Positions 12,109-37,104 of a stretch of 64,000 nucleotides of DNA are shown here, one piece after another. The notes beneath the pieces are model-generated. The model made no database searches. It was not told the DNA's origin and was given only the letters and a program-made list of their open reading frames with translations. The translations under genes were made by a program, and so were the position numbers. Every line of letters begins with the position of its first letter. The stretch's first letter is position 1. The DNA is from Pararhodobacter aggregans (GTDB lineage: Bacteria; Pseudomonadota; Alphaproteobacteria; Rhodobacterales; Rhodobacteraceae), in the NCBI RefSeq assembly GCF_003075525.1, contig NZ_QDDR01000005.1, positions 186,001 through 250,000 of the forward strand. Direction: 5' to 3'.

Positions 12109-12639
12109 TCAGGGCCGGGGGGCGAGGCGGTAGATGGGATCGTCGGGGAAGGCGGCGCCGATCGGCTGGCGGGGGCCGAAGCGCTCGGCCTCGCTGGCCT
12201 CGGGCACCGGCTGATCCTCGGCCCAGTCATAGACCACGACCCGCTCGGCCACCCGCCACTCGGTCCCGCGCTTCTCAAACCGGTCGCAATAGCGGCCGAT
12301 CAGCATGACCTGCCGCACCACGCCATCAGCCCCCGCGCCGCGCTGATGGGCGGTGAAATAGCTTTCCACCGCCGCGCCGGTCGGGCCGGTGAACTCGATC
12401 AGGACGTTGCTGACCACATGGATGTTGCGCGGTCCCGTCGCCCAGACCCGTTTCGCCCAGTCGATGAAGCCCTCGACCGGGCCGGAATAGGGGCCGTGGC
12501 GGTCGGTCGCGTCGGGCCAGTAGGACGCGCGCAACGCGGCCTCGTCGGCCCGGTCGATGCCCCGGCAATAGCGGTAGAGGCAATCGCGGATCGCCTCGCG
12601 GTCCAGCAATTCCTGCAGCTGGGCGGCTGGGTCAGTCAT
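12109..12639 (-). CDS. SnoaL-like / nuclear transport factor 2 family protein
   Basis: 176 aa with the cone-shaped NTF2 fold pattern: [22 protein letters not shown], then the acidic/aromatic [42 protein letters not shown] and [12 protein letters not shown]. The DREAIRD...YCRGID opening is typical of the SnoaL_4 group, which includes polyketide cyclases, dehydratases and small ring-hydroxylase-associated proteins. The pocket is expected to bind a small hydrophobic or cyclic compound; the reaction is unknown. The start codon overlaps the stop of the NDP-forming ligase by 3 bp (12636-12639), so it is co-translated in this minus-strand operon. Confidence 0.8.
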
Positions 12640-15627: not shown

Positions 15628-15647
15628 CTCTGGTGTCCGCAAAAGGC

Positions 15648-15693: not shown

Positions 15694-16914
15694 TTACTGC
15701 GTGAAGAGCGCGCAGCTGCTCTCTTCGCGGCTGCGCCAGGATTGTTCGGCCGGGATCAGGCCCAGCACGTTGTAATAATCCCAGGGCCCGGTCGATTCGG
15801 CGGGCGATTTCACCTGCACCATGATCATCGGATGCATGACGACGCCGTCCTCGCGGATCGAGACGTCCTGCATCAGGGGATCGTTCACCGGCGTCGCGCG
15901 CATCTGGTCCATGACCGCCACACCCTCGTCCGAACCCAGCGCAGACAGCGCTTCGAGGTAGTGGTTGACCGCCGAATAGGTGACGAGTTGCGCCTCGTTC
16001 GGGTAACGCCCGTCGAAGGCGGCATTGTAGCGCTCGGTCAGGGCGCGGCTCGCGTCGTAGTAGTTCCAGTAAGCCGCGGCCGAGAACACCAGGCCCTGCG
16101 TGGCCTCAAGCCCGATGCCGTGGATGTTGTTGGTCAGGATGCCCAGCGGCGCCAGATGCTGACCGGCGGCGACGATGCCGAATTCCTCGGCCTGCTTGAT
16201 GACGTTGGCAAGGTCGGCGCCCGCATTGGCGATGCCGATGACCTGCGCGCCGCTGGCCTGCGCCTGCAGCAGTTGCGAGGAGAAGTCGGTGGCGCCCAAG
16301 GGATGCAGGGTCGAGCCCAGCACCTCGCCGCCCGCCGCTTCGATGAAGCGGGTGGCATCGGCCTGCCAGGCATGGCCGAAGGTGTAGTCGACGGTGATGA
16401 AATACCAGCGCAGGTTGCCCTGCTCGATCTGAGCATTCACCGAGCCGCGGGCCAGCGTATAGGTGTCATAGGCCCAGTTGGTGGTCATGGGCGAACACTG
16501 GCTGTTGGTCGTCTCGGTCGTGGCGGTGCCGGCGATCAGATAGGGGCGTTCGTGCTGGCGCATCACGTCCTGCACGGCCAGCGCGATGGACGAGGCCGAG
16601 CAGCCGACGATGGCGTCGACGCCCTCTTCCTCGACCCAGCGGCGGGCGGTCGAGACGCCGATGTCGGGCTGGTTCTGGTCGTCGGCGATCACCAGTTCCA
16701 CCGGCACGCCGTTGATGGCGCCGCCGTGGTCCTCGATGGCCAGCCGCGCCATGGTGACGGAGCCCGCGCCGCAATTGTCAGCGTAGGGGCCCGATTGGTC
16801 GTTCATCACGCCGATCCGGATCACGCCGTCGGTGAAATCGGCCCAGGCGGGCGCGGCGGTGAGGGCGGTACAGGTCATCATCAGCGCCAGGGCGCCGGTC
16901 TTGGTCAGTGTCAT
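15694..16914 (-). CDS. ABC transporter substrate-binding protein, branched-chain amino acid (LivJ/HAAT) type
   Basis: 406-aa periplasmic binding protein. A Sec signal peptide is clear (MTLTKTGALALMMTCTALTA ending APAWA, cleavage near residue 25). The mature part begins IRIGVMNDQSGPYADNCGAG, the usual type I ligand-binding start, followed by VELVIADDQNQPDIGVSTAR and DAIVGCSASSIALAVQD. Members with such sequences often bind aromatic or other carboxylates rather than leucine. No permease or ATPase gene is adjacent; the only Liv-type transporter in the window is 6.6 kb away (23527-26787) and lacks its own binding protein, so the two probably belong together. Downstream terminator at 15648-15682. 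Confidence 0.9.
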   Translation of the reverse strand: MTLTKTGALALMMTCTALTAAPAWADFTDGVIRIGVMNDQSGPYADNCGAGSVTMARLAIEDHGGAINGVPVELVIADDQNQPDIGVSTARRWVEEEGVDAIVGCSASSIALAVQDVMRQHERPYLIAGTATTETTNSQCSPMTTNWAYDTYTLARGSVNAQIEQGNLRWYFITVDYTFGHAWQADATRFIEAAGGEVLGSTLHPLGATDFSSQLLQAQASGAQVIGIANAGADLANVIKQAEEFGIVAAGQHLAPLGILTNNIHGIGLEATQGLVFSAAAYWNYYDASRALTERYNAAFDGRYPNEAQLVTYSAVNHYLEALSALGSDEGVAVMDQMRATPVNDPLMQDVSIREDGVVMHPMIMVQVKSPAESTGPWDYYNVLGLIPAEQSWRSREESSCALFTQ

Positions 16915-16965: not shown

Positions 16966-17724
16966 TCACGAAAAAGCGTAGGTGACGCCCCCATCCACGA
17001 ACAGCATGTCGCCGGTGATGAAGGAGGCCTCGTCCGAGGCCAGGAACACGGCCGCATTGGCCATGTCCGCGGGTTGTCCCAGCCGGCCGATGGGCATGCG
17101 CTGGCGACGGCGTTCCCAGCCGTCCTCGCTCACCACCATATTGGCGCCGTCGGTCTGGGTGGGGCCGGGGGCGATGGCGGTGACGCGGATGTTGTCGGGG
17201 CCGAATTCGGCCGCGCCCGAGCGGGTCGCGGCAGCGACCGCGGCCTTGATGGCCGAGTACATGATGCCGTGTTTCATCGCCAGAACGGCCGAGGGCGAGG
17301 CGATGTTAACGATGACCCCGCCGCCTGCCGCGCGCATCTGCGGCACCGCCGCCTGATAGCCCCAGATCACCCCCTTGAAGCCCACGTCGATCATGCGCGA
17401 GATCATCGGCTCGGTCTGCTCTTCCAGCGGGCCGTAGCGGTTGTACATCGCGTTGTTGACCAGCACGGTGATCGGCCCGAAAGCGTGTTTCAGCTGCGCG
17501 GCCGCGGTGAAGACTTCTTCACGGTCGGCCACATTGGCCTTCAGCGCCAGCGCCTCGCCGCCCGCGGCGCGGATGGCGTCGGCGCATTCCTCGGCAACCT
17601 CGAGCTTGAGGTCCAGCACGCCCACTTTCGCCCCTTCACGGGCATAGGCCTCGCTGATCGCGCGGCCGATCCCGCGTCCGCCGCCCGTCACCAGGGCGAC
17701 CCGGTTGGCAAGTCTGCCTCCCAT
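16966..17724 (-). CDS. SDR family oxidoreductase
   Basis: 252-aa classical short-chain dehydrogenase: TGGGRGIGRAISEAYAREG (cofactor), VLVNNAMYN, VIVNIASPSAVLAM (catalytic Ser), YSAIKAAVA (YxxxK), and the C-terminal FVDGGVTYAFS. In NNAM the usual final G or A is Met. The ATG at 17724 has a good GGAGGAAAGGA ribosome-binding site; the frame remains open to 17979 but across the control region. It is divergent from the IclR regulator with the palindrome at 17919-17934 in between, and is followed by the binding-protein gene in one transcript. Confidence 0.88.
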   Translation of the reverse strand: MGGRLANRVALVTGGGRGIGRAISEAYAREGAKVGVLDLKLEVAEECADAIRAAGGEALALKANVADREEVFTAAAQLKHAFGPITVLVNNAMYNRYGPLEEQTEPMISRMIDVGFKGVIWGYQAAVPQMRAAGGGVIVNIASPSAVLAMKHGIMYSAIKAAVAAATRSGAAEFGPDNIRVTAIAPGPTQTDGANMVVSEDGWERRRQRMPIGRLGQPADMANAAVFLASDEASFITGDMLFVDGGVTYAFS

Positions 17725-17918
17725 TGTCTTCGTCCTTTCCTCCCGGTCCCGCGACCCGCCGCACGCCCCCTCCCCGAGGGTGCAGGCAACACGCGGCCGG
17801 GGCGCCGTGGCGCCCGTCCCGGTGGTCTTGCCTGCCGGATGCGGCTGGTCTCTGGGTGTGAGGGAAGGATTGCACGCGTCCGTGCAGGCGGCTAGAAAAT
17901 TCCGTCGGTGAAGTGGAG

Positions 17919-17934
17919 TTTCACACTTGTGAAT
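17919..17934. promoter_or_regulatory. Operator-like palindrome 1 (SDR/IclR divergent region)
   Basis: TTTCACACTTGTGAAT: 6-bp arms TTCACA and TGTGAA around a CT centre. It sits 33 bp before the IclR start at 17967 and 195 bp upstream of the divergent SDR gene. The same motif recurs at 18755-18770 and 30060-30075, always outside coding sequence and always upstream of a catabolic operon. Most likely the binding site of the IclR protein encoded next to it, allowing autoregulation. Confidence 0.7.
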
Positions 17935-17966
17935 TCCGGCCGAACGGGGATGGGGAGGTCCCGCCG

Positions 17967-18746
17967 ATGTCCAACGCACAGGTCAAGTCCGCCATGCGGG
18001 CTTTCGAGATCCTCGAACATTTCCGCCTGACCCAGCAGCCGCGCACCATGTCGGAACTCTCGGTCGATCTGGGCTATCCGCTGTCCTCGACCACGGTGCT
18101 GCTGAAGACGCTCGTGAACCTCGGCTACCTGAACTACGACCGCGGCAAGCGGGTCTATTTCCCGACCACCAAGGTCACCGGGCTGGGCGATTGGGTGCCG
18201 CGCGCGCTGTTCGGGTCGGGGCATGTCATCGATGCGATGAACGATGTCCACGCGATGACCAGCGAGGGGATCTTCGTCGGCACCCGCAACGATGTTTATC
18301 TGCAATACCTGAAGACCAAGCAATCCCTGCACGCGCTGCGCTTCTTCATCGACGAGGGGACGGTGCGGCCGATCACCCGGTCGGCGGCGGGCTGGGTGCT
18401 GATGTCGACCATGAGCGACGACAAGATCGAGAACATGGTCCGCCGCGCCAATATCGCCACGCAGAACCCGGCCGAGCGGGTGCTGGTGCCCGAGATCTTC
18501 CAGCGCGTGGCCGAGATTCGCGCCCGTGGCTATGGCTGGGCCGAGGACGTGCCCTTCGCGGGCGGCGCCACCATCGCCGTGCTGATGCCGGGCACGATCC
18601 TGGGCAGTCCGGTGACGCTGGCGCTGGGCGGGGTGACCGACCGGATCAAGAAGAATTTCGACAAGTACTTGGGCGCGCTGCGTCTTGCAGCGCGTTCGGT
18701 CCCGGCCGAGCCCGATTTCGACACGCCGATCCATATCGAGCTGTGA
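17967..18746 (+). CDS. IclR-family transcriptional regulator
   Basis: 259 aa. N-terminal winged helix: SAMRAFEILEHFRLTQQPRT then MSELSVDLGYPLSSTTVLLK (recognition helix) and LGYLNYDRGKRVYFPT. The C-terminal effector domain includes LHALRFFIDEGTVRPITRSA, GWVLMSTMSDDKIENMVRRA and TIAVLMPGTILGSPVTLALG. IclR effector domains bind small organic acids, often aromatic, and can repress or activate. I use the ATG at 17967 with a GGGGAGG ribosome-binding site; a GTG at 17913 would include the palindrome in the coding region. It is flanked on both sides by copies of the same palindrome, which suggests control of itself and both neighbouring operons. Confidence 0.9.
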   Translation: MSNAQVKSAMRAFEILEHFRLTQQPRTMSELSVDLGYPLSSTTVLLKTLVNLGYLNYDRGKRVYFPTTKVTGLGDWVPRALFGSGHVIDAMNDVHAMTSEGIFVGTRNDVYLQYLKTKQSLHALRFFIDEGTVRPITRSAAGWVLMSTMSDDKIENMVRRANIATQNPAERVLVPEIFQRVAEIRARGYGWAEDVPFAGGATIAVLMPGTILGSPVTLALGGVTDRIKKNFDKYLGALRLAARSVPAEPDFDTPIHIEL

Positions 18747-18754
18747 CGCCGGTT

Positions 18755-18770
18755 TTTCACGGATGTGAAT
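18755..18770. promoter_or_regulatory. Operator-like palindrome 2 (upstream of monooxygenase)
   Basis: TTTCACGGATGTGAAT, the same 16-bp layout as the copies at 17919 and 30060 with one arm mismatch (TTCACG against TGTGAA). It lies 9 bp after the IclR stop and 142 bp before the monooxygenase start, just upstream of the AT-richer GATATGCTGTAAT that may hold a -10 element. Confidence 0.6.
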
Positions 18771-18912
18771 GTCAGCGACCGATATGCTGTAATCGTTGAT
18801 CGCCGGGCCAAGACGGCGTTTCATCCCCCCAGACTGGGCGGCGAGGAGGCTGCCCCTGGCGCCGACCCGCCCAGCCGGGTGTCGCGCGCCATCGTTCAAA
18901 GGGAGGATCGAC

Positions 18913-20562
18913 ATGGGTCGAGCGCAAACGGTCGCCTCGGGGGCCGAACGGATTGACATGGTCATCGTCGGCGCGGGTTTCGGCGGCATGTATGCCACCT
19001 GGAAGTTCCGTGAGATGGGCCTGAACATCGTCAGCATCGAGGAAGGCGGCGATGTCGGCGGTGTCTGGTACTGGAACCGCTACCCGGGCGCGCGCTGCGA
19101 CCTGCTGTCGGTCGATTACAGCTATGGTTTCTCGGAAGAAGTACAGCAGGAATGGACCTGGTCCGAGCAATTCGCCGCCCAGCCCGAGATCCTGGCCTAT
19201 GCCAATTTCGTCGCCGACCGGCTGACGCTGCGTCCGCATTACCGCTTCAACACCCGTGTGGACAGCGCCAAATGGGACGATGCCCGCCAGCTTTGGGTCG
19301 TGCGGACGAATGACGGCAAGGTGCTGGAGGCGACGTATTGCGTCATGTCCACGGGCCCCTTGTCCAAGCCGACCGATCCCGACATCCCGGGGCTGAACCG
19401 CTTCAAGGGCCTGACCCTGCGCGCCGCCCGCTGGCCGCATGAGGAGCCGGATCTGAAGGGAAAGCGGATCGGCGTGCTGGGCACCGGGTCCTCGGGGATG
19501 CAGATCATCCAGACGTTGGGCCGCACCGAGTGCGAGCTCTTCGTGTTCCAGCGCACCCCCAGCTTCACCCTGCCGATGCGCAACCGCAAGGTCACCGACC
19601 GTGACGTGGCGGAGCTGAAGGCGAATTACGCCTCGATCCGCGCGGCCTGCCGGCTGAACCCGACGGGCGGCGCGCGCCCGGTGTCCACCCGGCCCTTCTT
19701 TTCCATCCCCGCCGATCACCGGCAGGAGCTGATGGAGCAGGCCTGGCAGCACGGCGGGCATACCTTCCTCGGCATCTTTTCCGACCTGATGGTCAATCAG
19801 GCGGCCAACGATCAGGTGGCGGATTTCGTCCGTGACCGGATCCACGACACGGTGATCGACAAGACCCTGGCCGAAAAGCTGAAGCCGCGCGGCTATCCGA
19901 TCTTCGCCCGGCGGCCCTGCCTCGATACCGGCTATTACGAGACCTACAACCGGCCGAACGTGCATCTGGTCGATTGCCTGGAGGACCCGATCGTCGAGAT
20001 CACCGACAAGGGCATCCGCACGCAATCGGGCGAGCATGAACTTGACGTGCTGATCCTCGCCACCGGCTATGACGCGCTGACCGGCGCGCTCTTGGCCTTC
20101 GAGATCACCGGCAAGGACGGGCTGGCGCTGAAGGACAAATGGGAGGGCGGGCCGCGCTCGCTCTTCGGGATCATGATGGCGGGTTTCCCGAACATGTTCA
20201 TGACCACGGGGCCGAACGGCCCGGCGGCGCTGGCCAATATCTTCACCATTTCCGAGAATGATGTGGATTTCATCGCCGGACTCATCGCCCATATGCGGGC
20301 GAAGGGGCAGGGCGCGGTCGAGCCCTCGCGCGCGGTCGAGGATGCCTGGATGGATCAGATCCAGGTGCTGGCCAGCCGCTCGCTGATGCTGAAGGCAAAG
20401 ACCTGGTGGACCGGCTCGAACGTGAAGGGCAAGCCGCAGGGCATGTCGATGTTCACCGGCGGTTTCCACAAATACCGCGAGGCCTGCGAGGCGGCGGTGG
20501 CGAACGGCTACCGTGACCTGAGCTTCGCGCCCGCGCATCAGGCCGAACCCGTCGCCGGCTGA
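18913..20562 (+). CDS. NAD(P)/FAD monooxygenase, Baeyer-Villiger type with altered fingerprint
   Basis: 549-aa single-component flavin monooxygenase. FAD motif GAGFGG at residues 20-25, then GGDVGGVWYWNRYPGARCD typical of Baeyer-Villiger enzymes, NADPH motif GTGSSG at about 190-195, and LILATGYDALTG. The Baeyer-Villiger fingerprint F-x-G-x3-H-x3-[WF]-P is present at residues 164-175 but the His is Arg (FKGLTLRAARWP). Length and overall order match cyclohexanone/acetone monooxygenase-like proteins. AAAGGGAGGA sets the ATG. It is followed 77 bp later by an acyl-CoA ligase and preceded by IclR palindrome 2. Expected to oxygenate a ketone or related carbonyl compound; the substrate, and whether ester formation survives the His change, is open. 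Confidence 0.87.
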   Translation: MGRAQTVASGAERIDMVIVGAGFGGMYATWKFREMGLNIVSIEEGGDVGGVWYWNRYPGARCDLLSVDYSYGFSEEVQQEWTWSEQFAAQPEILAYANFVADRLTLRPHYRFNTRVDSAKWDDARQLWVVRTNDGKVLEATYCVMSTGPLSKPTDPDIPGLNRFKGLTLRAARWPHEEPDLKGKRIGVLGTGSSGMQIIQTLGRTECELFVFQRTPSFTLPMRNRKVTDRDVAELKANYASIRAACRLNPTGGARPVSTRPFFSIPADHRQELMEQAWQHGGHTFLGIFSDLMVNQAANDQVADFVRDRIHDTVIDKTLAEKLKPRGYPIFARRPCLDTGYYETYNRPNVHLVDCLEDPIVEITDKGIRTQSGEHELDVLILATGYDALTGALLAFEITGKDGLALKDKWEGGPRSLFGIMMAGFPNMFMTTGPNGPAALANIFTISENDVDFIAGLIAHMRAKGQGAVEPSRAVEDAWMDQIQVLASRSLMLKAKTWWTGSNVKGKPQGMSMFTGGFHKYREACEAAVANGYRDLSFAPAHQAEPVAG

Positions 20563-20639
20563 GGCCTTTCCCCCCGATGTCGCTGTCACCGGCCGCGCCC
20601 GACGCGGCCGGGCAAACCCTGTCACCCCGGAGGTATCCC

Positions 20640-22274
20640 ATGCTGGGTCTCATGCAGGATCGGCCGCTGCTGATCTCGTCCCTTCTGACGCACGCCGAGC
20701 GCTACCATCCGCAGAGCGAGATCGTGTCCGTCACCTGCGAGGGGGCGGTGGTGCGCAGCGATTGGGCGGGGATCGCCCGGCGCGCGCGGCAGGCGGCGCA
20801 GGCGCTCAGGCGGCTGGGGGTGAAGCCCGGCGACCGGGTGGCGACGCTGGCCTGGAACACGCACCGGCATCTGGAACTCTACTATGCTGCCGCCGGGATC
20901 GGCGCGGTGCTGCACACGGTCAATCCCCGGCTTTTCCCCGAGCAGATCGACTACATCCTGAACCACGGCGCGGCCGAGGTGCTGTTGCTCGACACGCCCT
21001 TCCTGCCGCTGGTCGACGGGCTGGCGGGCAAGCTCGATCACGTCCGGCACCGCGTCCTGCTGTCCGACGCTCTGCCCGAGGGCCGCGCGGATCTGGCCTG
21101 TTACGAGGATCTTCTGGAAGCCGAGGACGGCATGCTGGACTGGCCGGTGTTCGACGAGAAACAGGCCTCGGGGCTCTGCTATACCTCGGGCACCACCGGG
21201 AACCCGAAGGGTGTGCTCTATTCCCACCGCTCGACCGTGCTGCACGCCTTCCTCTGCTGTCAGGTCGACGGGCTGCATCTGTCGCGGGCCGATTCCACGC
21301 TGCTGGCCGTGCCGCTGTTCCATGTGAACGCCTGGGGGATTCCCTATGCCTCGGCCTTGTGCGGGGCGAAGCTGGTGCTGCCGGGGCCGAAGCTGGACGG
21401 GCAGTCGCTGTTCGATCTGGCGCGGGCCGAGGGCTGCACCTTTTCGCTGGGGGTGCCGACGGTCTGGATCGGGCTGTTCAAGTATCTGGACGAGGCGGGG
21501 CTCCAGACCCGCGACCTGCCCTTCGAGCGCGTGCTGATGGGTGGCTCGGCCGCGCCCCGGGCGCTGCTGGAACGCTTCCACGCCGCCGGGATTCACGCCT
21601 TCCAGGCCTGGGGCATGTCGGAAACCAGCCCCGTCGCCACCGTCGCCACCCTGCTGCCTCATCACCGGGATCTGCCGAAGGCGAGCCAGATCGACGTGCT
21701 GGCCCGGCAGGGGCGGGCGATGTTCGGGGTCGAGCTGAAGATCGTCGGCGAGGACGGGGCGGAACTGCCGCAGGACGGCAGCGCCTCGGGCGAGCTGATG
21801 GTGCGGGGGCCCTGGGTCACGTCGGGCTATTACGGCGGGGTCGGCGGGCAGGTGGTCGATGAGGGCGGCTGGTTCGCGACCGGCGACGTGGCGAAGATCG
21901 ACGCCGAGGGGTTCGTCACGCTGACGGACCGGTCCAAGGACGTCATCAAGTCGGGCGGCGAGTGGATCAGCTCCATCGAGCTGGAGAATGCGGCGCTGGG
22001 CCATCCGGCGGTCGAGGCCGCGGCGGTGGTGGGCGTGACGCACGAGCGCTGGCAGGAACGCCCGCTGATGCTGGTGGTGAGGAAACCGGGCGCGCAGGTC
22101 GAACCGGGCGCGATCCTCGCCTTCCTCGAGGACAAGGTGGTGCGCTGGTGGTTGCCCGACGATGTGGTCTTCGTCGAGACCCTGCCGCTGACCGCGACGG
22201 GAAAGCTGGACAAGAAGGTCCTGCGCGAGGCTTGGCGGGATCATCTGGTCAGGGCCGGGGCGTCAGCTCCATAA
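20640..22274 (+). CDS. AMP-forming long/medium-chain acyl-CoA synthetase
   Basis: 544-aa ANL ligase: [20 protein letters not shown], then [52 protein letters not shown] and the lysine end [16 protein letters not shown]. The N-terminus ([14 protein letters not shown]) is that of AlkK-type fatty acyl-CoA synthetases. CCCGGAGG at 20626-20633 marks the ATG at 20640; an in-frame ATG at 20577 lacks such a site. It lies in the same transcript as the monooxygenase and probably activates the acid made from its product. Its 3' end overlaps the convergent WYL regulator by 26 bp. Confidence 0.87.
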
Positions 22275-22974
22275 ACGGGCAGACATCCGCTTCGAACGGG
22301 ACACGGCGACGCCGGAACGGCGGTCCGGGGGCGATCTCGGGCCGCGCGATCCTGTCCATGCGGAAATGTCGGAAATCGGCCCGCTCGCGGTCCCAGCCGA
22401 CCAGATACCACAAGGGCGGCAGGATCAGCATCGCCTGCGGCTCGGCCAACCGCCGGGTCGCGCGACCCTTGGCGTCGCGATAGTCGAAGGTCAGGGGCTG
22501 ACGGTCCAGAAACGCCGTCTCGAAACAGGGCAGCAGGGCCGGGTCCATGGCGCCCCGGTCGGACAGGTCCTGCAGGGGCGACAGCCGTCCGACATGCAGC
22601 CCCTCCAAGAGCGCGCGCAGGTCGCGGAGTTGGTCTGGCGGCAGGTTTTTCTCGATCTTGGCAAGGCCCGAGTCGGCCAGCTCGGCAAAGGGCACATCCC
22701 GCGCGATCTGCATGGCCGAGACGGTGACGATCAACGCGAAGACCTCGCTGACCGACAGGCGCGGGCCGGACCGGGCGGCCTGCGGATCGAGCTGCAATCC
22801 ACCGCCGGGGCCGGGCTCGGAATGGATGAGGTAGCCCTCATCACGCAGGCAGGACAGGTCGCGCAGCACCGTGCGGCGCGAGGCGCCGACCGTTTGGGCC
22901 AGCGTCCCGATCGTGGTGAGGCCGTTGCGGCGGAGGTGGCGGATCAGCTGGTCCTGGCGGGCGCGGGTGTTCAT
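22249..22974 (-). CDS. YafY-family transcriptional regulator (HTH + WYL domain)
   Basis: 241 aa. N-terminal winged HTH: RQDQLIRHLRRNGLTTIGTL, GASRRTVLRDLSCLRDEGYL, SEPGPGGGLQLD. The C-terminal WYL domain begins LTFDYRDAKGRATRRLAEPQ and has LPPLWYLVGWDRERADFRHF. Such proteins are ligand-responsive repressors or activators that often control a divergent small gene. Here the divergent gene is the RidA-like protein, and a two-tier dyad (22982-23027) fills the 87-bp gap. The 3' end overlaps the acyl-CoA ligase on the other strand. Confidence 0.88.
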   Translation of the reverse strand: MNTRARQDQLIRHLRRNGLTTIGTLAQTVGASRRTVLRDLSCLRDEGYLIHSEPGPGGGLQLDPQAARSGPRLSVSEVFALIVTVSAMQIARDVPFAELADSGLAKIEKNLPPDQLRDLRALLEGLHVGRLSPLQDLSDRGAMDPALLPCFETAFLDRQPLTFDYRDAKGRATRRLAEPQAMLILPPLWYLVGWDRERADFRHFRMDRIARPEIAPGPPFRRRRVPFEADVCPFMELTPRP

Positions 22975-22981
22975 GCGCCAA

Positions 22982-23027
22982 GGATAGCATGATTGGTGAC
23001 AAGTTTTGGCACCAATGCTGGCTATCC
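22982..23027. promoter_or_regulatory. Nested dyad between WYL regulator and ridA-like gene
   Basis: Two perfect 7-bp inverted repeats nested about one centre. The inner arms are ATTGGTG (22992-22998) and CACCAAT (23010-23016); the outer arms are GGATAGC (22982-22988) and GCTATCC (23021-23027). It covers most of the divergent promoter gap, as expected for the regulator's operator. This could also form an RNA hairpin, but its place before both starts favours protein binding. Confidence 0.65.
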
Positions 23028-23061
23028 CGTGTCAGGCACTCAAGACACAGGAGATTTCGCC

Positions 23062-23472
23062 ATGACCGCCAACACCTTGCCCCGGATCGTCAACCCCGCG
23101 CCGCTGCCCGATCCCAGCCCGAACGGCTACAGCACGGCGGTGATCGCGCCCGCATCGGCACGGCTTGCGTTCATCTCCGGGCAGGGCGGGCAGGATCACT
23201 CGGGCGCGCTGTCGCCCGATTTCGCGGCTCAGGTCCGGCAGGCTTATGCCAACCTCGGCGCGGTGCTCGGCGGGTTGGGTGCCGGGCCTGAGCGCGTGGT
23301 GAAGCTGACCACTTATGTCGTGGATCACGACCCGTCGAAACTGGGTCCGCTGACTGAGGCAGTGATCGCCCTGTTCGGGGATCGCTTGCCGGCTCAGACA
23401 TTGGTGGGGGTCTCGGCGCTCGCCATCCCGCCGATGCTGTTCGAGGTCGAGGCCGTTGTCGCGGTGGACTGA
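23062..23472 (+). CDS. RidA/YjgF-family protein lacking the canonical arginine
   Basis: 136-aa small Rid-fold protein: LAFISGQGGQDHSGALSPDF, QVRQAYANLGAVLGGLGAGP, VVKLTTYVVDH and FEVEAVVAVD at the C-terminus. True RidA deaminates reactive enamines/imines with an Arg in a PARS/T motif; here that position reads PAQT (Gln at about residue 112), so it belongs to one of the Rid groups without proven imine deaminase activity. The start ATG has a CAGGAG site; upstream in-frame codons fall in the operator. It is divergent from, and probably controlled by, the WYL regulator. Confidence 0.85.
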   Translation: MTANTLPRIVNPAPLPDPSPNGYSTAVIAPASARLAFISGQGGQDHSGALSPDFAAQVRQAYANLGAVLGGLGAGPERVVKLTTYVVDHDPSKLGPLTEAVIALFGDRLPAQTLVGVSALAIPPMLFEVEAVVAVD

Positions 23473-23483
23473 GCGCAGGGCAA

Positions 23484-23506
23484 AGGGGCGGGATTGACCC
23501 GCCCCT
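23484..23506. terminator. Probable bidirectional terminator between ridA-like gene and livM
   Basis: Perfect 9-bp stem AGGGGCGGG/CCCGCCCCT with a 5-base loop, in the 54-bp gap between two convergent stops (23472 and 23527). The plus-strand exit is only moderately T-rich (CGCTGTCTTGT), and the minus-strand exit starts TTT, so termination strength is uncertain. Confidence 0.55.
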
Positions 23507-23526
23507 CGCTGTCTTGTGGCCGGTGG

Positions 23527-24453
23527 TCAGGCCTTCGCCGAGCGGCGCCTGATGAAAGCCTGCAACTCGCCGACCAAGCCCCGGCGGAAGAACAGGATCA
23601 CCACCAGGAACACGGTGCCCTGGATTATCAGTGCCCATTCCCCGAATTGCGCGAGGTGGTCGTTCAGCATCACGATCAGCGCGGCGCCGACCATGGGGCC
23701 GGCCATGGTGCCAAGACCGCCCAGCAACGCCATGAAGATGATCGTGCCGGACACGTGGAACGACAGGTCGTGCAGCGTCGCGATCTGATAGACCGAGGCC
23801 TTCATCGCCCCCGCCAGCCCCGCCAGCCCGGCCGAGAGGGTCAGCGCCACGATCTTGAACCGTTCGGGCACGAAGCCCAGGGATTCCACCCGCCCCTCGT
23901 TGTCGCGGATGGCGCGCAGCACCTCGCCGAAGGGGGAATGCACGATGCGGTAGAAGAACCAGATCGCCGCCACCGAGATGGCCAGGATCAGGTAATAGAG
24001 CGACAGGTTCGACGACACGTCGATCACCCCGAAGAGGTCCGAGCGCGGGATGCGCTGCAACCCGTCCTCGCCATGGGTGAAGGGCGCGCGCAACAGCAGG
24101 AAATAGACGAATTGCGAGATGGCCAGCGTGATCATCGCGAACTGGATCCCGCCGCGCCGGGCCGAGATCAGCCCCACGACCCAGCCCAGCGCCGCCATGG
24201 CAAGCGTCGTCGCAGCAAAGGCCAGCTCGATGCTGAACCCGCCCTCCTTCATCAGCCAGCCGCCGATATAGGCGCCGGTGCCGAAGAACATGGCGTGCCC
24301 GAAGCAGAGGAGCCCCGCGTAGCCCAAGAGCAGGTTGAAGCTGGAGGCGAAGACCATGAAGCACAGGATGGTCATCAGCAGGATCGGATAGACGAAGAAC
24401 GGCGCGGCAAGGGCCACCACGGCCAGCGCGGCGAGAAGCAGGATGCGGGTCAT
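23527..24453 (-). CDS. livM: Branched-chain amino acid ABC transporter permease, LivM type
   Basis: 308-aa inner-membrane permease with about nine hydrophobic segments (from ILLLAALAVVALAAPFFVYP onward) and the conserved cytoplasmic loop FGEVLRAIRDNEGRVESLGF, the EAA-like coupling motif for the ATPases. It overlaps livH by 4 bp (ATGA) and is the last gene of the minus-strand operon acyl-CoA dehydrogenase - hydratase - dehydrogenase - livG - livF - livH - livM. There is no binding protein in this operon; the orphan at 15694 is the likely partner. Confidence 0.93.
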   Translation of the reverse strand: MTRILLLAALAVVALAAPFFVYPILLMTILCFMVFASSFNLLLGYAGLLCFGHAMFFGTGAYIGGWLMKEGGFSIELAFAATTLAMAALGWVVGLISARRGGIQFAMITLAISQFVYFLLLRAPFTHGEDGLQRIPRSDLFGVIDVSSNLSLYYLILAISVAAIWFFYRIVHSPFGEVLRAIRDNEGRVESLGFVPERFKIVALTLSAGLAGLAGAMKASVYQIATLHDLSFHVSGTIIFMALLGGLGTMAGPMVGAALIVMLNDHLAQFGEWALIIQGTVFLVVILFFRRGLVGELQAFIRRRSAKA

Positions 24454-25334
24454 CGGGAGGACTCCGGCGAAGAGAACAGGCCATTGGGCCGCAGGATCAG
24501 CGCGACGATCATGATGACGAAGATCGCGAGGTTCGAGGCTTCGGGGTAGAAGACCTTGGTCAGGCCCTCGACAATGCCGATCAGATAGCCGGTGAGGATC
24601 GCGCCGAGGATCGAGCCCATGCCGCCAATCACCACCACGGCGAAGATGACGATCATCAGGTTCGAGCCCATCGAGGGCGAGACCTGATAGATCGGCGCGG
24701 CCAGCACGCCCCCCAGACCCGCCAGCCCGACGCCGAAGGCATAGGTCAGGCTCATCATCCGCGGCACGTTGATGCCGAAGCTTTCGACAATCTCGGGCCG
24801 TTCATTGGCCGCCCGCAGATAGGCGCCGAGCTTGGTCTTTTCGATCAGCAGCCAGGTGGCGATGCACACGACCAGCGAGAAGATCACCACCCAGCCCCGG
24901 TAATAGGGCAGGAACATGAAGCCGAGGTTGACGCCGCCCGGCAGCGGCGAGGCATAGGGCAGTCCGGTCGAGCCGAATTCCAGCCGCATCAACCCCTCGA
25001 TAATCAGCACCGCCGCGAAGGTGGCGAGCAGGCTGTAAAGGTGGTCGAGGTGCCTGAGCGGCTTCAGGATGGTCTGTTCCATCAATAGGCCAAAGGCCCC
25101 CACCACCACCGGCGCGATGATGAGCGCGCCCCAATAGGGGATGCCCAGATGGTTCAGCAGCAGGAGCGCGACGAAGGCGCCCAGCATGTATTGCGCGCCA
25201 TGGGCGAAGTTCACCACATGGATCAGGCCGAAGATGATGGCGAGGCCGAGGCTGAGCATGGCATAGAAAGACCCGTTGATAAGGCCGATCAGCAATTGCC
25301 CCAGCAGCAGCTGCATCGAGATGTGGTCGAACAT
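24450..25334 (-). CDS. livH: Branched-chain amino acid ABC transporter permease, LivH type
   Basis: 294-aa membrane protein: LLGQLLIGLINGSFYAMLSL start, GLIHVVNFAHGAQYMLGAFV, the coupling loop LGAYLRAANERPEIVESFGI, and GGMGSILGAILTGYLIGIVE near the end. It forms the heterodimeric channel with LivM. It follows livF by 3 bp and runs into livM with a 4-bp overlap. Substrate class for Liv-type systems is hydrophobic amino acids or small carboxylates; the surrounding acyl-CoA genes favour a carboxylic acid. Confidence 0.93.
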   Translation of the reverse strand: MFDHISMQLLLGQLLIGLINGSFYAMLSLGLAIIFGLIHVVNFAHGAQYMLGAFVALLLLNHLGIPYWGALIIAPVVVGAFGLLMEQTILKPLRHLDHLYSLLATFAAVLIIEGLMRLEFGSTGLPYASPLPGGVNLGFMFLPYYRGWVVIFSLVVCIATWLLIEKTKLGAYLRAANERPEIVESFGINVPRMMSLTYAFGVGLAGLGGVLAAPIYQVSPSMGSNLMIVIFAVVVIGGMGSILGAILTGYLIGIVEGLTKVFYPEASNLAIFVIMIVALILRPNGLFSSPESSR

Positions 25335-25337
25335 GGC

Positions 25338-26034
<697 letters not shown>

Positions 26035-26042
<8 letters not shown>

Positions 26043-26787
26043 CGACGCCTCCCATATAGGCGGTAATCACCTCGGGATCGGTCGAGACCTCGGCATAGGT
26101 GCCTTCGGTCAGGACCTCGCCATGCTGCAAGACGGTGATCCGCTCGCAGAGGCTGGAGACGACCGAGAGGTTATGCTCGACGATCAGGATCGTCCGCCCG
26201 GCCGAGACCTTGCGGATCAGGTCGGTGATCGGCTCCACATCCTCGTGCCCCATCCCGGCGGTGGGCTCGTCGAGCAGCATCACCTTGGGGTCGAGCGCCA
26301 GCGTCGTCGCAATCTCCAGCGCGCGCTTCTTGCCGTAGCTGAGTTCGGTCGCGGGCGTCTCCTCGCGCCCGGCCAGACCCACTTGGGCCAGCAGCTCGCG
26401 GGCGCGCTGGTTCAGCGGTTCCACCGCTTTCAGCGAGCGCCAGAACTGGAACGCCGTGCCGTTGTTCGATTGCAGCGCGACGCGGACGTTTTCCAGACAG
26501 GTCAGATGCGGGAAGGTGGCCGAGATCTGGAAGCTGCGCACGAGGCCCAGCTTCGCCACCTGTGCCGACCGCAGCTTGGTGATGTCCTGCCCGTCCAGCA
26601 GCACCTGACCCGCGGTGGGCGTCAGGGTCTTGGTCAGCAGGTTGAAACAGGTGGTCTTGCCGGCGCCATTGGGGCCGATCAGCGCATGGATCGACCCGCG
26701 CCGGACCTTCAGGTTCACGTCCTTCACCGCGTGGAAGCCGCCGAAGGTCTTGGTCAGCCCCCGCGCTTCGAGTGCATAGTCGCTCAT
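26035..26787 (-). CDS. livG: Branched-chain amino acid ABC transporter ATP-binding protein, LivG type
   Basis: 250-aa ATPase: GPNGAGKTTCFNLLT (Walker A), ELSYGKKRALEIATTLA (LivG-type signature, SYG instead of SGG), MLLDEPTAGMG (Walker B) and LIVEHNLSVV (H-loop). Two starts are possible: ATG at 26787, used here, or a GTG at 26796 that overlaps the preceding dehydrogenase stop as GTGA and adds MTA. Either way it is coupled to the acyl-CoA dehydrogenase upstream, tying the transporter to the catabolic genes. Confidence 0.92.
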
Positions 26788-26792
26788 CGCCG

Positions 26793-27977
26793 TCACCGTG
26801 AGGGCAGGCCGAGGACGGCCTTGGCAAGGATGTTGCGCTGGATCTCGTTGGAACCCCCGAAGATGGCGGGCGCGCGGGCGTCGAGGAACAGGTTCATCGC
26901 GTCGACATGGCCGCCGTCGCCCAGGGGCAGGTCGTCATAGTAGCGCGCCTCCTCACCCGCGACGGCCAGCGTCTCCTCGGTGATGCGCTGGTAGAGTTCG
27001 GTGCAGAAGAGCTTCAGGACCGAGACATCGGCGCCCAGAGTGCCGCCCTCGCGCAGAACCTTGGCGAACCGCTCGAAGGCCGAGCCGAGGTCGTAGAGGT
27101 CGAGCCTGAGCTTGGCAAAGCGCGAGCGGAAGGCGGGGTCGTCAAAGGCGCCGCGGTCTTCGGCCAGCATCTCCAGCCTTGTCAGGGCGTATTCGGGCCG
27201 GGACGGCGCGCCGAGGAAGATGCGCTCATGCCCCAGCACGGCCTTGGCCAGCGCCCAGCCCGCGTTGACCTCGCCCACGACGTTCTTGGCGGGGACACGG
27301 ACGTTGTCGAAGAAGACCTCGCAGAAATCGGCCTCTTCGCGCAGGTTGGGGATGGTACGGACCACGACGCCGGGCGAGGTGAGGTCCACGAGCAGCACGG
27401 TGATCCCGTTCTGCGGCTTGGCGGCCTCCTTGTCGGTGCGGGCCAAGAGCAGGATCCAGTTGGCGCAATGCGCCAGCGTGGTCCAGATCTTCTGGCCGTT
27501 GATGACGAATTCGTCGCCATCCCGCACGGCCGAGGTGCGCAAGGACGCCAGATCCGAGCCCGCGTTCGGTTCGGAATAGCCCTGACACCAGACATGCTCA
27601 CCGGACAGGATGCGGGGCAGGAAGAAGTCCTTCTGCGCCTCGGTGCCGAATTCGATCAGCAGGGGCCCGGTCAGCCCGATGCCATGGTCGGGAATGCGGG
27701 GACAGCCCAGCCGCGCCCATTCCTCGACATAGACGATGTGCTTGGCGGCGTTCAGCCCCATCCCGCCGTGTTCCTGCGGCCAGACCGGCGAGAGCCAGCC
27801 CTTGCGGGCCAGCGCGTGATACCATTCCGCCACCTCGTCGAAGACCGGGCGCTGCTTGCGCATGAAGCGCAGATGGGCGGGGCAGTTCTGATCCACCCAG
27901 TCGCGGAAGATCGCCCGGAAGTCCTCGTCCGTCAGCGCGTTCCAGTCCTGTTGCTCGGGCACAGCCTTGGTCAGCAT
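26793..27977 (-). CDS. Acyl-CoA dehydrogenase (large, alpha-type subunit)
   Basis: 394 aa with all three acyl-CoA dehydrogenase domains: WVDQNCPAHLRFMRKQRP N-terminal, WCQGYSEPNAGSDLASLRT and FVINGQKIWTTLAHCANWIL for FAD binding, and IFGGSNEIQRNILAKAVL at the C-terminus. The YSEPNAGSDLA and FGGSNEIQ motifs are those of the FAD-binding partner in heteromeric (alpha2beta2) dehydrogenases of steroid and alicyclic pathways. The smaller partner is probably the gene at 28768. The start overlaps the hydratase stop by one base (TGATG). Confidence 0.9.
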   Translation of the reverse strand: MLTKAVPEQQDWNALTDEDFRAIFRDWVDQNCPAHLRFMRKQRPVFDEVAEWYHALARKGWLSPVWPQEHGGMGLNAAKHIVYVEEWARLGCPRIPDHGIGLTGPLLIEFGTEAQKDFFLPRILSGEHVWCQGYSEPNAGSDLASLRTSAVRDGDEFVINGQKIWTTLAHCANWILLLARTDKEAAKPQNGITVLLVDLTSPGVVVRTIPNLREEADFCEVFFDNVRVPAKNVVGEVNAGWALAKAVLGHERIFLGAPSRPEYALTRLEMLAEDRGAFDDPAFRSRFAKLRLDLYDLGSAFERFAKVLREGGTLGADVSVLKLFCTELYQRITEETLAVAGEEARYYDDLPLGDGGHVDAMNLFLDARAPAIFGGSNEIQRNILAKAVLGLPSR

Positions 27978-28756
27978 CACAGACCATCCCCGAAGACGGC
28001 CGGGCGCTTTTCCATGAAGGCGCGCATGGCTTCCTTGCTGTCGGGATGGCGGGTCATCTCGACCGTCAGGTTCTGCTCGAAGCGGTAGCCGTCCTTCAGG
28101 CCCATCGTCTCGACGGTGTTGAGGGCGCGCTTGGCCAGCCGGATCGCGGCCGGGCTTTTCGAGGCGATGTTGCGGGCGATCTCCATCGCCGTGTCCATCA
28201 GGTCCTCGGGCGCGACACAGGCCTCGATCAGGCCGCGGCGGTAGAGTTCCGCGGCGGGCACGCGCCAGCCGGTCAGCACCATGCGGCGGGTCAGCGACAT
28301 GGGGAAGACCCGCATCGTGTGGCGCACGCCGCCCATCAGGCCGATGTCGATCTCGGGCAGGCCGAAGACCGCGTTCGTGGAGGCCACGATCATGTCGGAA
28401 CAGATCGCGAGGCCCATGCCCGCGCCCAGCGCCGGGCCGTTCACGGCGGCGATGACGGGGACGTTCATCTCCATGATGACGAAGCCCACCTCGCGCGCGC
28501 GGCGCAGGTGGCGATAGGTGTCGCCCGGCACGCCGTCCGCGAGTTTGGCGCGCGACTTGATGTCGGCCCCGGCCGAGAAGCACTTGCCCGCGCCGGTCAG
28601 CACGATGCAGCGCACGCCGGGGGTTTCGTTCAACGCGTCGAAAACCTCGATCAGTTCCTCCATGAAGGCGCGCGACTGGGCGTTCACGGGCGGCGCGTCC
28701 ATGGTGATGACGGCAACGTGGTCGGTGATCTCGGTCTTGATCAGCTCGTTTCGCAT
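27977..28756 (-). CDS. Enoyl-CoA hydratase/isomerase (crotonase family)
   Basis: 259-aa crotonase fold: VAVITMDAPPVNAQSRAFME, CIVLTGAGKCFSAGADIKSR (first oxyanion-hole strand), NGPALGAGMGLAICSDM (second oxyanion element) and AVFGLPEIDIGLMGGVRHTM. The catalytic Glu region reads GLPEIDIG, normal for hydratases of this group. It lies between the two acyl-CoA dehydrogenase genes, as in a beta-oxidation-like unit: dehydrogenate, then hydrate. Start ATG with AGGACA upstream, 11 bp after the previous stop. Confidence 0.9.
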   Translation of the reverse strand: MRNELIKTEITDHVAVITMDAPPVNAQSRAFMEELIEVFDALNETPGVRCIVLTGAGKCFSAGADIKSRAKLADGVPGDTYRHLRRAREVGFVIMEMNVPVIAAVNGPALGAGMGLAICSDMIVASTNAVFGLPEIDIGLMGGVRHTMRVFPMSLTRRMVLTGWRVPAAELYRRGLIEACVAPEDLMDTAMEIARNIASKSPAAIRLAKRALNTVETMGLKDGYRFEQNLTVEMTRHPDSKEAMRAFMEKRPAVFGDGL

Positions 28757-28767
28757 GGAATGTCCTT

Positions 28768-29862
28768 TCAGGCAGCACGCTCGGCGGCGAGGAACGCCAG
28801 CCGCAGCTCTTCGGGTTGGCCCAGCGTCGCGTTGAGGGCGATCGCGCGCTTGAGGTAGAGGCCGATGTCGCATTGGTCGGTGAAGCCCATGGCGCCATGC
28901 AGCTGGATCGCCTTGCGGGTGATCGAGGTGGCGCTGTCGCCGGCCCGGGCCTTGGCGGCGAGCACGGCCTGCGCGACCTCGCCCTCGGGCGCGGTGGCGG
29001 CGTTGGTGCAGGCCGAGCAGGCGAATTCCGCCTCGGCCCACATGTCCACCAGCCGGTGCTGGATCGCCTGGAAACTGGCGATGGTCTTGCCGAATTGGAC
29101 CCGGTTCGCGGTGTACTCGACGGTGATCTCCAGCGCGCGGGCGCCGATGCCCGCCAATTCCGCGGCAAGCGCCATGCGGGCCGTGGTGATGGCGGTCCCG
29201 AGCGCGGTCTCCAGCGCCGCCCCACGGGCCAGCACCCTCCCCGCCGGGACGTCATGCAGCGAGACGGTCGCCAGCGTCGCGCCGTCGATGCCCGGGCGGG
29301 TGACGACGCGCAGCCCGGGCGCCCCGGCGGGCAGGTGGATCAGCACGGGCGTCTCGGCGTTATTTGCCAGCACCAGAAAGCCGGTGGCCGAACTGGCGCC
29401 CGCCACCAGATGGGCGGTGCCGTTCAGCAGGTCGTCGGTCAGCGCCAGCGGCGCCGTGCGGCCGCGGGCATCCTGCCAGAGGACCGGCAGGATCGCCTCG
29501 CCCCGGCCCAGCCCGGCGCCGAGCGCCTGCAGGTGCTCGTCCGGCGGCAGCGCGGCCAGCAGGGCGCCGGGGAAGACGGCGAGCGTGGCGAAGGGTTCGG
29601 TGATCAGCGCCCGGCCCAGCGCCTCGGCGGCGACGGTCAGCTCGGGGCGGCCCAGCGCCAGCCCGCCCATATCCTCGGGCAGGGGCAGGGCCAGAAAGCC
29701 CGCCTCGGCCAGCGCCGTCCAGACCTGCGGGTCCAGATCGGCCCCGGCGGCGCGGCGGCGGCGGAAGGTGGCGGGGCCATCGGCCTCGGCCGCCAGCGCG
29801 GCGAGGCTGTCGCGCAGCATGGCCAGCGTGGCGTCGGGATCGTCGAGTTGGATGAGGGGCAT
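28768..29862 (-). CDS. Acyl-CoA dehydrogenase family protein (small, beta-type subunit)
   Basis: 364-aa acyl-CoA dehydrogenase-like protein with weakly conserved FAD contacts: the middle domain lacks the T-E-P/SDL blocks (it has VLWQDARGRTAPLAL instead), while the C-terminal domain retains FGKTIASFQAIQHRLVDMW and AIQLHGAMGFTDQCDIGLY. Such degenerate partners pair with a conventional subunit such as the one at 26793. First gene of the minus-strand operon that ends with livM; palindrome 3 lies 198 bp upstream of its ATG. GGAGGCACC precedes the start. Confidence 0.88.
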   Translation of the reverse strand: MPLIQLDDPDATLAMLRDSLAALAAEADGPATFRRRRAAGADLDPQVWTALAEAGFLALPLPEDMGGLALGRPELTVAAEALGRALITEPFATLAVFPGALLAALPPDEHLQALGAGLGRGEAILPVLWQDARGRTAPLALTDDLLNGTAHLVAGASSATGFLVLANNAETPVLIHLPAGAPGLRVVTRPGIDGATLATVSLHDVPAGRVLARGAALETALGTAITTARMALAAELAGIGARALEITVEYTANRVQFGKTIASFQAIQHRLVDMWAEAEFACSACTNAATAPEGEVAQAVLAAKARAGDSATSITRKAIQLHGAMGFTDQCDIGLYLKRAIALNATLGQPEELRLAFLAAERAA

Positions 29863-30247
29863 GGTGCCTCCGGCAGTTGCATCAACGGCGCGGCAGGCTC
29901 CCGGCAGGGTCGGCGCAATAGGCGACCCTCGTCGCCCGAAGGCGAACGGTTTCGCTGTCTGGATTGGCCTCCCCCGCGGGACCCAGGTCCACGCGCTCCG
30001 GCTACAGGAGGCGGGTTCGGGGGCTTTTTGTCAAAACCTATCGCATGCTGGGAAGGCAGTTTCACAAGTGTGAAATGACCGGGGTGAGGGGAGGCCGGGC
30101 AAGCCCGCCGCGGGCGGTGGGAGGGGGCGGCGCAGATCGGTGTCAGCTTGCGTCCGGTGGGCCGGGACGGGGCGGGCCGGACCAGCGCCGGGGCGTGCAC
30201 CCCGGCCTTGGCGCGTCGGGCCGCGGTCCCGTGCCGGTCGCGGACCG
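29863..30247. other. Non-coding control region between acyl-CoA dehydrogenase operon and PRTase gene
   Basis: 385 bp without a credible gene. It contains the 16-bp palindrome at 30060-30075, an AT-richer patch just left of it (CTTTTTGTCAAAACC, 30024-30038) that could hold promoter elements for the minus-strand operon, and then a very G/C-rich stretch to 30247 behind the stop of the phosphoribosyltransferase gene. I see no convincing terminator with a T tract. Confidence 0.6.
30060..30075. promoter_or_regulatory. Operator-like palindrome 3 (upstream of acyl-CoA dehydrogenase/liv operon)
   Basis: TTTCACAAGTGTGAAA, the most perfect of the three copies: 7-bp arms TTTCACA/TGTGAAA around AG. It lies in the long non-coding region 198 bp upstream of the minus-strand operon that carries both dehydrogenases, the hydratase and livGFHM. 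Its match with 17919 and 18755 links the transporter operon to the IclR regulator 12 kb away. Confidence 0.7.
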
Positions 30248-34358: not shown

Positions 34359-35413
<1,055 letters not shown>

Positions 35414-35417
35414 GGGT

Positions 35418-36206: not shown

Positions 36207-36207
36207 G

Positions 36208-37044: not shown

Positions 37045-37063
37045 GGGGGTCTCCGGCAGGTCC

Positions 37064-37084: not shown

Positions 37085-37104
37085 TGTCGTCGCATGTCTT
37101 CGGC

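What the first reader, a model, noticed from the sequence alone, without database searches (positions are those of the whole stretch)
17919..30075. A 16-bp palindrome at three control regions defines a probable IclR regulon
TTTCACACTTGTGAAT (17919), TTTCACGGATGTGAAT (18755) and TTTCACAAGTGTGAAA (30060) share the layout TTTCAC-N4-TGTGAA(A/T). All three are non-coding, and I noticed no other copy while reading the window. They lie upstream of the SDR/binding-protein operon and the IclR gene (one divergent region), the monooxygenase/ligase operon, and the dehydrogenase/liv operon. An IclR gene sits between the first two. So one regulator plausibly controls uptake, oxygenation, CoA activation and beta-oxidation of one compound.
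Basis: partly seen in the sequence, partly recalled or inferred. Interest (0 to 1): 0.8.

Follow-up and report, generated by a model that had tools for sequence, protein, structure and literature searches.

The report
IclR regulon for a lactone-forming catabolic pathway
Three copies of a short DNA palindrome mark the switches of a bacterial gene set that probably imports and breaks down an unknown ketone, and the same palindrome follows the same regulator and genes in related bacteria, which makes it very likely the docking site of that regulator.

Summary
The three palindromes are real, non-coding and specific. TTTCAC-N4-GTGAAW occurs at only these three places in the 5.08-Mb genome (about 0.07 expected). 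IclR orthologues (61-99% identity) in Rhodobacterales and some Rhizobiales carry the palindrome just upstream: 19 of 19 within 3 mismatches, against 1 of 27 other IclR loci. The sites follow the operons through rearrangement and also occur on other contigs: before tctC in Albibacillus and before the monooxygenase gene in two Mesorhizobium MAGs. The refined operator is TTTCACA-NN-TGTGAAA, at some promoters with a third half-site 21 bp from the first, and with a TTGACA-like box 24-25 nt downstream. This resembles the published three-box (PcaU-type) IclR operators and suggests activation. The controlled genes (SDR, ABC transporter, Baeyer-Villiger-type monooxygenase, SMP-30 lactonase, CoA ligases, beta-oxidation enzymes) fit ketone-to-lactone catabolism; substrate unknown, binding untested. 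New member of a known kind.

The parts
17919..17934 (.). Palindrome 1 (TTTCACACTTGTGAAT) in the divergent SDR / iclR control region
   Evidence: aligned with 12 orthologous regions
17907..17913 (-). Third half-site (CTTCACC, 5 of 7 to TTTCACA) 21 bp from the first half-site, on the SDR side
18755..18770 (.). Palindrome 2 (TTTCACGGATGTGAAT) upstream of the monooxygenase/ligase operon
   Evidence: present at the same place in the six loci L041-L046
18796..18801 (+). Predicted -35 box TTGATC, 25 nt after palindrome 2
   Evidence: inferred
18819..18824 (+). Predicted -10 box TTTCAT, 17 nt after the -35 box
   Evidence: TTTCAT in 6 of 7 promoters of this class (inferred)
30060..30075 (.). Palindrome 3 (TTTCACAAGTGTGAAA) upstream of the dehydrogenase/liv operon
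30029..30034 (-). Predicted -35 box TTGACA, 25 nt after palindrome 3 (its -10 box is not clear)
   Evidence: inferred
17967..18746 (+). IclR-family regulator (HTH_IclR + IclR_C), the presumed binder of all three sites
16966..17724 (-). SDR-family dehydrogenase
15694..16914 (-). Periplasmic substrate-binding protein (Peripla_BP_6)
14719..15642 (-). SMP-30/gluconolactonase-like protein, likely lactonase
   Evidence: SGL, E 5.8e-77; annotated in the plasmid orthologue
12636..15341 (-). Open frame holding an ADP-forming acyl-CoA synthetase (domains at residues 217-898; the N-terminal part overlaps the SMP-30 gene and is probably not translated)
12109..12639 (-). SnoaL-like protein
11590..12099 (-). 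Flavin reductase domain protein
10053..11585 (-). Tandem SDR protein
18913..20562 (+). Baeyer-Villiger-type monooxygenase, closest solved relative phenylacetone monooxygenase
20577..22274 (+). AMP-forming acyl-CoA ligase (best NCBIfam model 3-(methylthio)propionyl-CoA ligase, below its cut-off)
28768..29862 (-). Acyl-CoA dehydrogenase (best NCBIfam model pimeloyl-CoA dehydrogenase small subunit, below its cut-off)
27977..28762 (-). Enoyl-CoA hydratase/isomerase family protein
26793..27962 (-). Second acyl-CoA dehydrogenase
23527..26796 (-). livG, livF, livH, livM-type transporter genes (ATPases and permeases; no binding protein in this operon)
   Evidence: for livG, livF and livH; livM from its sequence and its place

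Best explanation
The three palindromes are operators of the IclR-family regulator encoded at 17967-18746. It binds TTTCACA-NN-TGTGAAA, at some promoters together with a third half-site two helical turns from the first, as reported for PcaU and PobR. Bound just upstream of the -35 box, with its effector present, it most likely activates three operons that take up a compound and degrade it. In the proposed pathway the SDR oxidises an alcohol to a ketone, the monooxygenase makes a lactone or ester, the SMP-30 protein opens it, and CoA ligases and beta-oxidation enzymes finish the job. Because palindrome 1 lies only 32 nt before the regulator's own start codon, binding there probably also represses iclR. 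Shown here: occurrence, specificity, conservation with this regulator, movement with the operons, sites on other contigs, and a shared spacing to a -35-like box. Inferred: binding, activation, autorepression, effector and pathway.
For: Exactly three sites in the genome. 19 of 19 orthologues have the palindrome (within 3 mismatches) upstream of iclR, against 1 of 27 controls. In an alignment of 13 of the 19 SDR-iclR intergenic regions (45% mean column identity) 13 of the 20 invariant columns fall in the palindrome, the T after it and the third half-site. Sites stay with operons that are arranged differently: before the ligase gene in L047-L055, before the monooxygenase gene in L041-L046. A whole-genome motif scan of two Mesorhizobium MAGs led to the same cluster (all but the monooxygenase gene) with a 61% IclR that the protein search had missed. 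Sites on other contigs: before tctC in Albibacillus and before the monooxygenase gene in both Mesorhizobium MAGs. Third half-site: 3.86 of 7 matches on average against a shuffle maximum of 2.64 (0 of 2000), present on the SDR side and absent on the iclR side. TTGACA-like box at positions 41-42: 3.96 of 6 (one base of play allowed) against a shuffle maximum of 3.0 (0 of 1000). Of the two regulator genes of the window that were sought in the related loci, IclR recurs with the cluster and the WYL gene is in 1 of 17 loci.
Against: No binding or expression data. The third half-site is weak at palindrome 3 and absent at palindrome 2 in the window, and absent at the tctC sites. The SDR promoter has no TTGACA box at the shared spacing; its best match is at position 61. 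Three of the 19 orthologues (two of them one species) need 3 mismatches. In the related genomes the motif is less exclusive than in the window's own: the 12-position form within 1 mismatch has 5-14 places per genome in 16 genomes (reversed control 0-3), the 14-position form within 2 mismatches 4-15 in 17 genomes (control 0-8); most of these places were not examined, and one that was (L093 4001) has no cluster gene beside it. At 1 mismatch 72 of 291 genomes without a close orthologue also have a match, 21 of them two or more (my count). The two Mesorhizobium MAGs also carry a 58% IclR paralogue with a nearly identical recognition helix and no palindrome upstream, so more than one regulator could use the sites there. 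Other regulator types (TetR, LysR) lie near the cluster on one plasmid.
Confidence: 0.85

Rival explanations
1. The IclR protein binds the same sites but acts as a classical repressor that an inducer releases.
For: [quoted passage not shown] palindrome 1 is close to the iclR start codon, a repressing position.
Against: At the ligase, dehydrogenase and monooxygenase promoters the palindrome ends 24-25 nt upstream of the -35-like box and does not overlap the presumed core promoter.
Confidence: 0.25
2. The palindrome belongs to a general regulator of another family (CRP/FNR-like, GntR, TetR) that controls catabolic genes.
For: It is a 16-bp inverted repeat, a shape many regulators use; the window also encodes a WYL regulator near the ligase gene.
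Against: Only three sites in the genome, all here. Presence follows the IclR orthologue. The WYL gene is found in only 1 of 17 loci. The half-site fits the published IclR group-1 consensus.
Confidence: 0.04
3. The sites are copies of one ancestral promoter region kept by descent, without current function.
For: The clusters are related, so their promoters are not independent.
Against: The surrounding intergenic DNA has diverged (45% mean column identity) while the boxes stay; sites also lie before tctC genes and on separate contigs.
Confidence: 0.02

Closest known systems
PcaU / PobR (Acinetobacter baylyi), IclR-family regulators with a three-box operator
   Same: Group-1 palindrome plus an external direct half-site repeat; regulator of catabolic genes (PMC8222616: passages, sections). 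That they are activators appears there in the titles of cited papers.
   Different: Half-site TTTCAC(A) instead of the PcaU/PobR type (TTTGTTCGAT, TTGTCCGAT); the third half-site is missing at some promoters of the regulon; the genes suggest a Baeyer-Villiger/lactone/CoA pathway, not 4-hydroxybenzoate or protocatechuate use.
IclR-family group-1 motif, subgroup WTTYCRYW3RYGRAAW (Suvorova and Gelfand 2021, PMC8222616)
   Same: Same half-site pattern WTTYCRY / RYGRAAW (the outer W is only weakly kept here).
   Different: Four bases between the half-sites instead of three; four is the spacing of subgroup NGTYCRAW4TYGRACN.
Phenylacetone monooxygenase (PDB 1w4x) for the controlled oxygenase
   Same: Alignment over almost the whole length, E 5e-165; first fingerprint and both Rossmann motifs present.
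   Different: The fingerprint His of FxGxxxHxxxW[P/D] is Arg.

Membership tests
IclR-family transcription factor | N-terminal IclR HTH domain and C-terminal IclR effector domain, about 250 residues | tested here: met
   HTH_IclR 4.8e-11 (42.7 bits, cut-off 22), IclR_C 2.3e-7 (31 bits, cut-off 24); 259 aa
IclR-family operator, group 1 | Palindrome GKTYCRY-W3-4-RYGRAMC | tested here: met
   Consensus of 28 non-redundant sites TTTCAC-N4-GTGAAA fits the six inner positions of each half; the outer G/C is not kept and the spacer is A-NN-T rather than all W (consensus)
PcaU-type three-box operator | Third half-site, direct repeat of the first, outside the palindrome | tested here: inconclusive
   Met for the SDR and ligase promoters at exactly 21 bp; weak for the dehydrogenase promoters; absent for the Pararhodobacter-group monooxygenase and the tctC promoters
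PcaU-type activator | Activation of the adjacent catabolic promoter with an effector | not testable with these tools
   Only the position upstream of a -35-like box is consistent
One-regulator regulon | Sites co-occur with the regulator across genomes and are specific to its target operons | tested here: met
   in the related genomes further places with 1-2 mismatches were left unexamined
CRP/FNR-type general regulator | Many sites at unrelated operons across the genome | tested here: not met
   Three places in 5.08 Mb, all here
Type I Baeyer-Villiger monooxygenase | Two Rossmann motifs, [A/G]GxWxxxx[F/Y]P[G/M]xxxD and FxGxxxHxxxW[P/D] (PMC4498894, passages) | tested here: not met
   Rossmann motifs and the first fingerprint are present; the second has Arg for His in the window and in 14 of 14 cluster orthologues. 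By sequence it is a close relative of phenylacetone monooxygenase; activity is untested

The most novel reading that the evidence does not exclude
An undescribed, patchily spread catabolic regulon for an unidentified cyclic alcohol or ketone. It is run by a PcaU-like activator whose three-box operator is tuned promoter by promoter (third box strong, weak or absent) at a fixed distance from the -35 box. Its oxygenase is a Baeyer-Villiger-type clade with Arg in place of the fingerprint His, which fingerprint-curated surveys would exclude.
Probability: 0.4. Interest if true: 0.55.

Novelty: new member of a known kind. Interest (0 to 1): 0.42.

Why it matters
The palindrome gives a testable regulon for a catabolic gene set whose substrate is unknown. 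It ties a liv permease operon without a binding protein to the binding-protein gene elsewhere in the cluster, a tctCBA transporter to the same control in some species, and a Baeyer-Villiger-type monooxygenase to a lactonase. Physiological substrates of these monooxygenases are widely unknown (PMC4498894, start of abstract), so a regulator with a defined operator offers a handle for finding the inducer, and through it the substrate.

Tried and rejected
CRP/FNR-like general site: rejected by the genome count. Paracoccus RamB paper (PMC10370305), which holds both half-site strings: in the passages they are in primers, so it is unrelated. The 12-position pattern with up to 2 mismatches is too loose (85 places in the own genome). 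The extra tandem pair GTTCACAGCTGTGAAC on contig C17 lies between a RepC-like and a ParB-like frame and is probably a plasmid partition site (genes judged by eye from the sequences, recalled families, no family search). The other two 1-mismatch places in the own genome lie inside open frames. Palindrome-like hits within 2 mismatches in the orthologue loci that I did not count as operators: L045 3153, L048 803 (inside ACAD1), L054 8771 (inside the binding-protein gene). L050 19020, a second copy 53 bp from 18967, was left out of the promoter statistics. L053, L055 and L090 have degenerate iclR-side palindromes (3 mismatches). The iclR promoter itself could not be placed. In L055 the tct genes are remnants: the tctC match stops at residue 159 and runs into the end of tctA, so its site counts for little. 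Phylum-wide search: apart from the own genome no relative above 38% in 398 genomes. Literature, listings only: searches (2 papers; none; 6 papers; 15 of 42 shown) gave no title that reports this regulon; the supplementary regulog tables of PMC8222616 could not be read, so the regulog may be listed there.

Redundancy: L017, L034, L042 are one genome (G222/G296); L018, L036, L054 one (G192/G307); L019, L039, L052 one (G092/G305); L048 and L092 one contig; L055 and L090 one species. The 19 orthologues are therefore at most 18 species. Promoter statistics used 28 of 42 promoters after removing those at least 70% identical to one already kept; the tctC sites and the Mesorhizobium monooxygenase sites came later and are not among the 42. 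L044's genome was not held, so it is in none of the genome-wide scans.
Full report
Observation. The three palindromes are at the stated places and lie outside genes. The genome behind the window (5,079,942 bases, 32 contigs) has exactly three places for it, all within 12.2 kb, where 0.07 are expected at the window's base composition.

Genes. Leftward from palindrome 1: an SDR, a periplasmic binding protein, an SMP-30/gluconolactonase-like protein (14719-15642), an ADP-forming CoA ligase, a SnoaL-like protein, a flavin reductase and a tandem SDR. Rightward from palindrome 1: the IclR gene. Rightward from palindrome 2: a monooxygenase whose best solved relatives are phenylacetone and steroid monooxygenases and an AMP-forming CoA ligase. 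Leftward from palindrome 3: an acyl-CoA dehydrogenase, an enoyl-CoA hydratase family protein, a second acyl-CoA dehydrogenase and livGFHM-type genes. The set reads as uptake, ketone formation, lactone formation, lactone opening, CoA activation and beta-oxidation. The order is inferred from family functions; the substrate is not known.

Orthologues. In 295 same-family genomes the regulator has close relatives (63% or more) in 4, including its own; the other matches are at 29-34%. A scan of named genomes gave 17 relatives at 58-99% and 8 at 27-31%. Fifteen of the 17 (L041-L055) lie with the same genes, in several arrangements, and all 15 have the 12-position palindrome within 2 mismatches just before iclR. 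The other two (L056, L057; Mesorhizobium MAGs, 58%) have neither. A motif scan of those two genomes found three palindromes within about 9.3 kb in each. The stretches hold the cluster, all but the monooxygenase gene, with a 61% IclR orthologue and sites before iclR, before the ligase gene and before the dehydrogenase gene. So the DNA motif found a cluster that the protein search had missed.

Control for specificity. With the 14-position consensus, the 400 bp upstream of iclR hold a match within 2 mismatches in 16 of 19 orthologues and within 3 in 19 of 19; among 25 non-orthologues (27-38%) and the 2 paralogues the number is 1 of 27 at either level. Within 1 mismatch, 76 of 295 genomes have any match; the four orthologue-bearing genomes have 2, 2, 3 and 2, and by my count of the printed table 21 of the other 291 reach two or more. 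Within the orthologue-bearing genomes the looser forms have further places: 5-14 per genome for the 12-position form at 1 mismatch (control 0-3) and 4-15 for the 14-position form at 2 mismatches (control 0-8). Most of these were not examined.

Sites on other contigs. The third 1-mismatch place in Albibacillus (G092 contig 28, position 5391) is about 118 nt before the presumed start of a tctC gene, on a different contig from the cluster. The tctC orthologue in Pseudooceanicola onchidii has a site 113 nt before its presumed start (L036 5633). Pseudosulfitobacter has one before a tctC remnant (L055 19929). In both Mesorhizobium MAGs the monooxygenase orthologue (67%) is on another contig. It has a conserved TTTCACGARTATGAAT, then six bases, then TTCACAT or TGCACAT upstream; this palindrome has 3 mismatches to the consensus and was not found by the genome scans. 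One of the two also has a stronger palindrome 40 bp further upstream that the other lacks.

Architecture. Forty-two promoters were anchored on the palindrome and reduced to 28 below 70% identity. A direct repeat of the left half-site lies at positions 22-28, exactly 21 bp from the first: mean 3.86 of 7 matches, shuffle maximum 2.64 in 2000 shuffles. It is strong for SDR and ligase promoters (4.38, 4.71), weaker for dehydrogenase promoters (3.33), absent for the Pararhodobacter-group monooxygenase promoters (1.60). A T two bases after the palindrome is kept in 27 of 28. The repeat is on the SDR side and not on the iclR side of palindrome 1 (4.50 against 1.29). A TTGACA-like box lies at positions 41-42 (3.96 of 6 with one base of play, shuffle maximum 3.0 in 1000 shuffles), clearest for ligase (5.1) and dehydrogenase (5.0) promoters, less so for monooxygenase promoters (3.6). 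Seventeen bases later comes a plausible -10 box, TTTCAT in 6 of 7 monooxygenase promoters. The SDR promoter fits this spacing poorly, its best TTGACA match being at 61. In an alignment of 13 of the 19 SDR-iclR regions, 13 of 20 invariant columns lie in the boxes, and most of the rest in two short stretches further downstream that may be promoter elements.

Comparison. The review of IclR motifs (PMC8222616; outline, passages and sections 4, 13, 14, 15 seen) gives the group-1 consensus GKTYCRYW3-4RYGRAMC, reports predicted three-box sites for 32 orthologous groups, and states that PcaU, PobR and HmgR have an external direct half-site that PcaU needs. The operators here fit that kind, with a WTT-type half-site and a four-base spacer. 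I judge activation more likely than repression because the operator lies upstream of the presumed core promoter. That is geometry, not a measurement.

Verdict. It is a new member of a known kind. The unusual parts are the uneven use of the third box within one regulon and the monooxygenase clade with Arg for the fingerprint His.

Noticed in passing
window 18913-20562: The monooxygenase has FKGLTLRAARWP where the Baeyer-Villiger fingerprint asks for FxGxxxHxxxW[P/D]: the His is Arg. The Arg is kept in 14 of 14 cluster orthologues and in L096 and L097, while phenylacetone monooxygenase has His. A survey that curated by the fingerprint (PMC4498894, passages) would drop this clade.
   Followed up: partly
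G000:C17:71421-71482 (L091 9422-9483): Tandem GTTCACAGCTGTGAAC palindromes between a RepC-like and a ParB-like frame, probably a plasmid partition site; the contig may be a plasmid (families judged by eye, no family search).
   Followed up: partly
L090 (NZ_CP054606.1): The same catabolic genes lie on a 250-kb plasmid of Pseudosulfitobacter pseudonitzschiae H46, which may explain the patchy spread; the livG to second-dehydrogenase part there aligns in broken pieces.
   Followed up: no
L055 19035-19929: A tct transporter operon reduced to the start of tctC and the end of tctA, with a palindrome still upstream.
   Followed up: no
window 22249-23472: A WYL-domain regulator and a RidA-like gene lie between the ligase gene and livM; both recur in 1 of 17 related loci (L043).
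   Followed up: no
window 32143-41048: A neighbouring gene set with two nucleoside hydrolases, an amidohydrolase, a protein with an adenine-deaminase C-terminal domain and an ABC transporter suggests nucleoside salvage; no palindrome within 2 mismatches there.
   Followed up: no
L056, L057: A 58% IclR paralogue in Mesorhizobium MAGs with a nearly identical recognition helix but no palindrome upstream and none of the cluster genes nearby.
   Followed up: partly
L050 18967 and 19020: Pseudooceanicola nanhaiensis has two palindromes with the same core 53 bp apart before the ligase gene.
   Followed up: no
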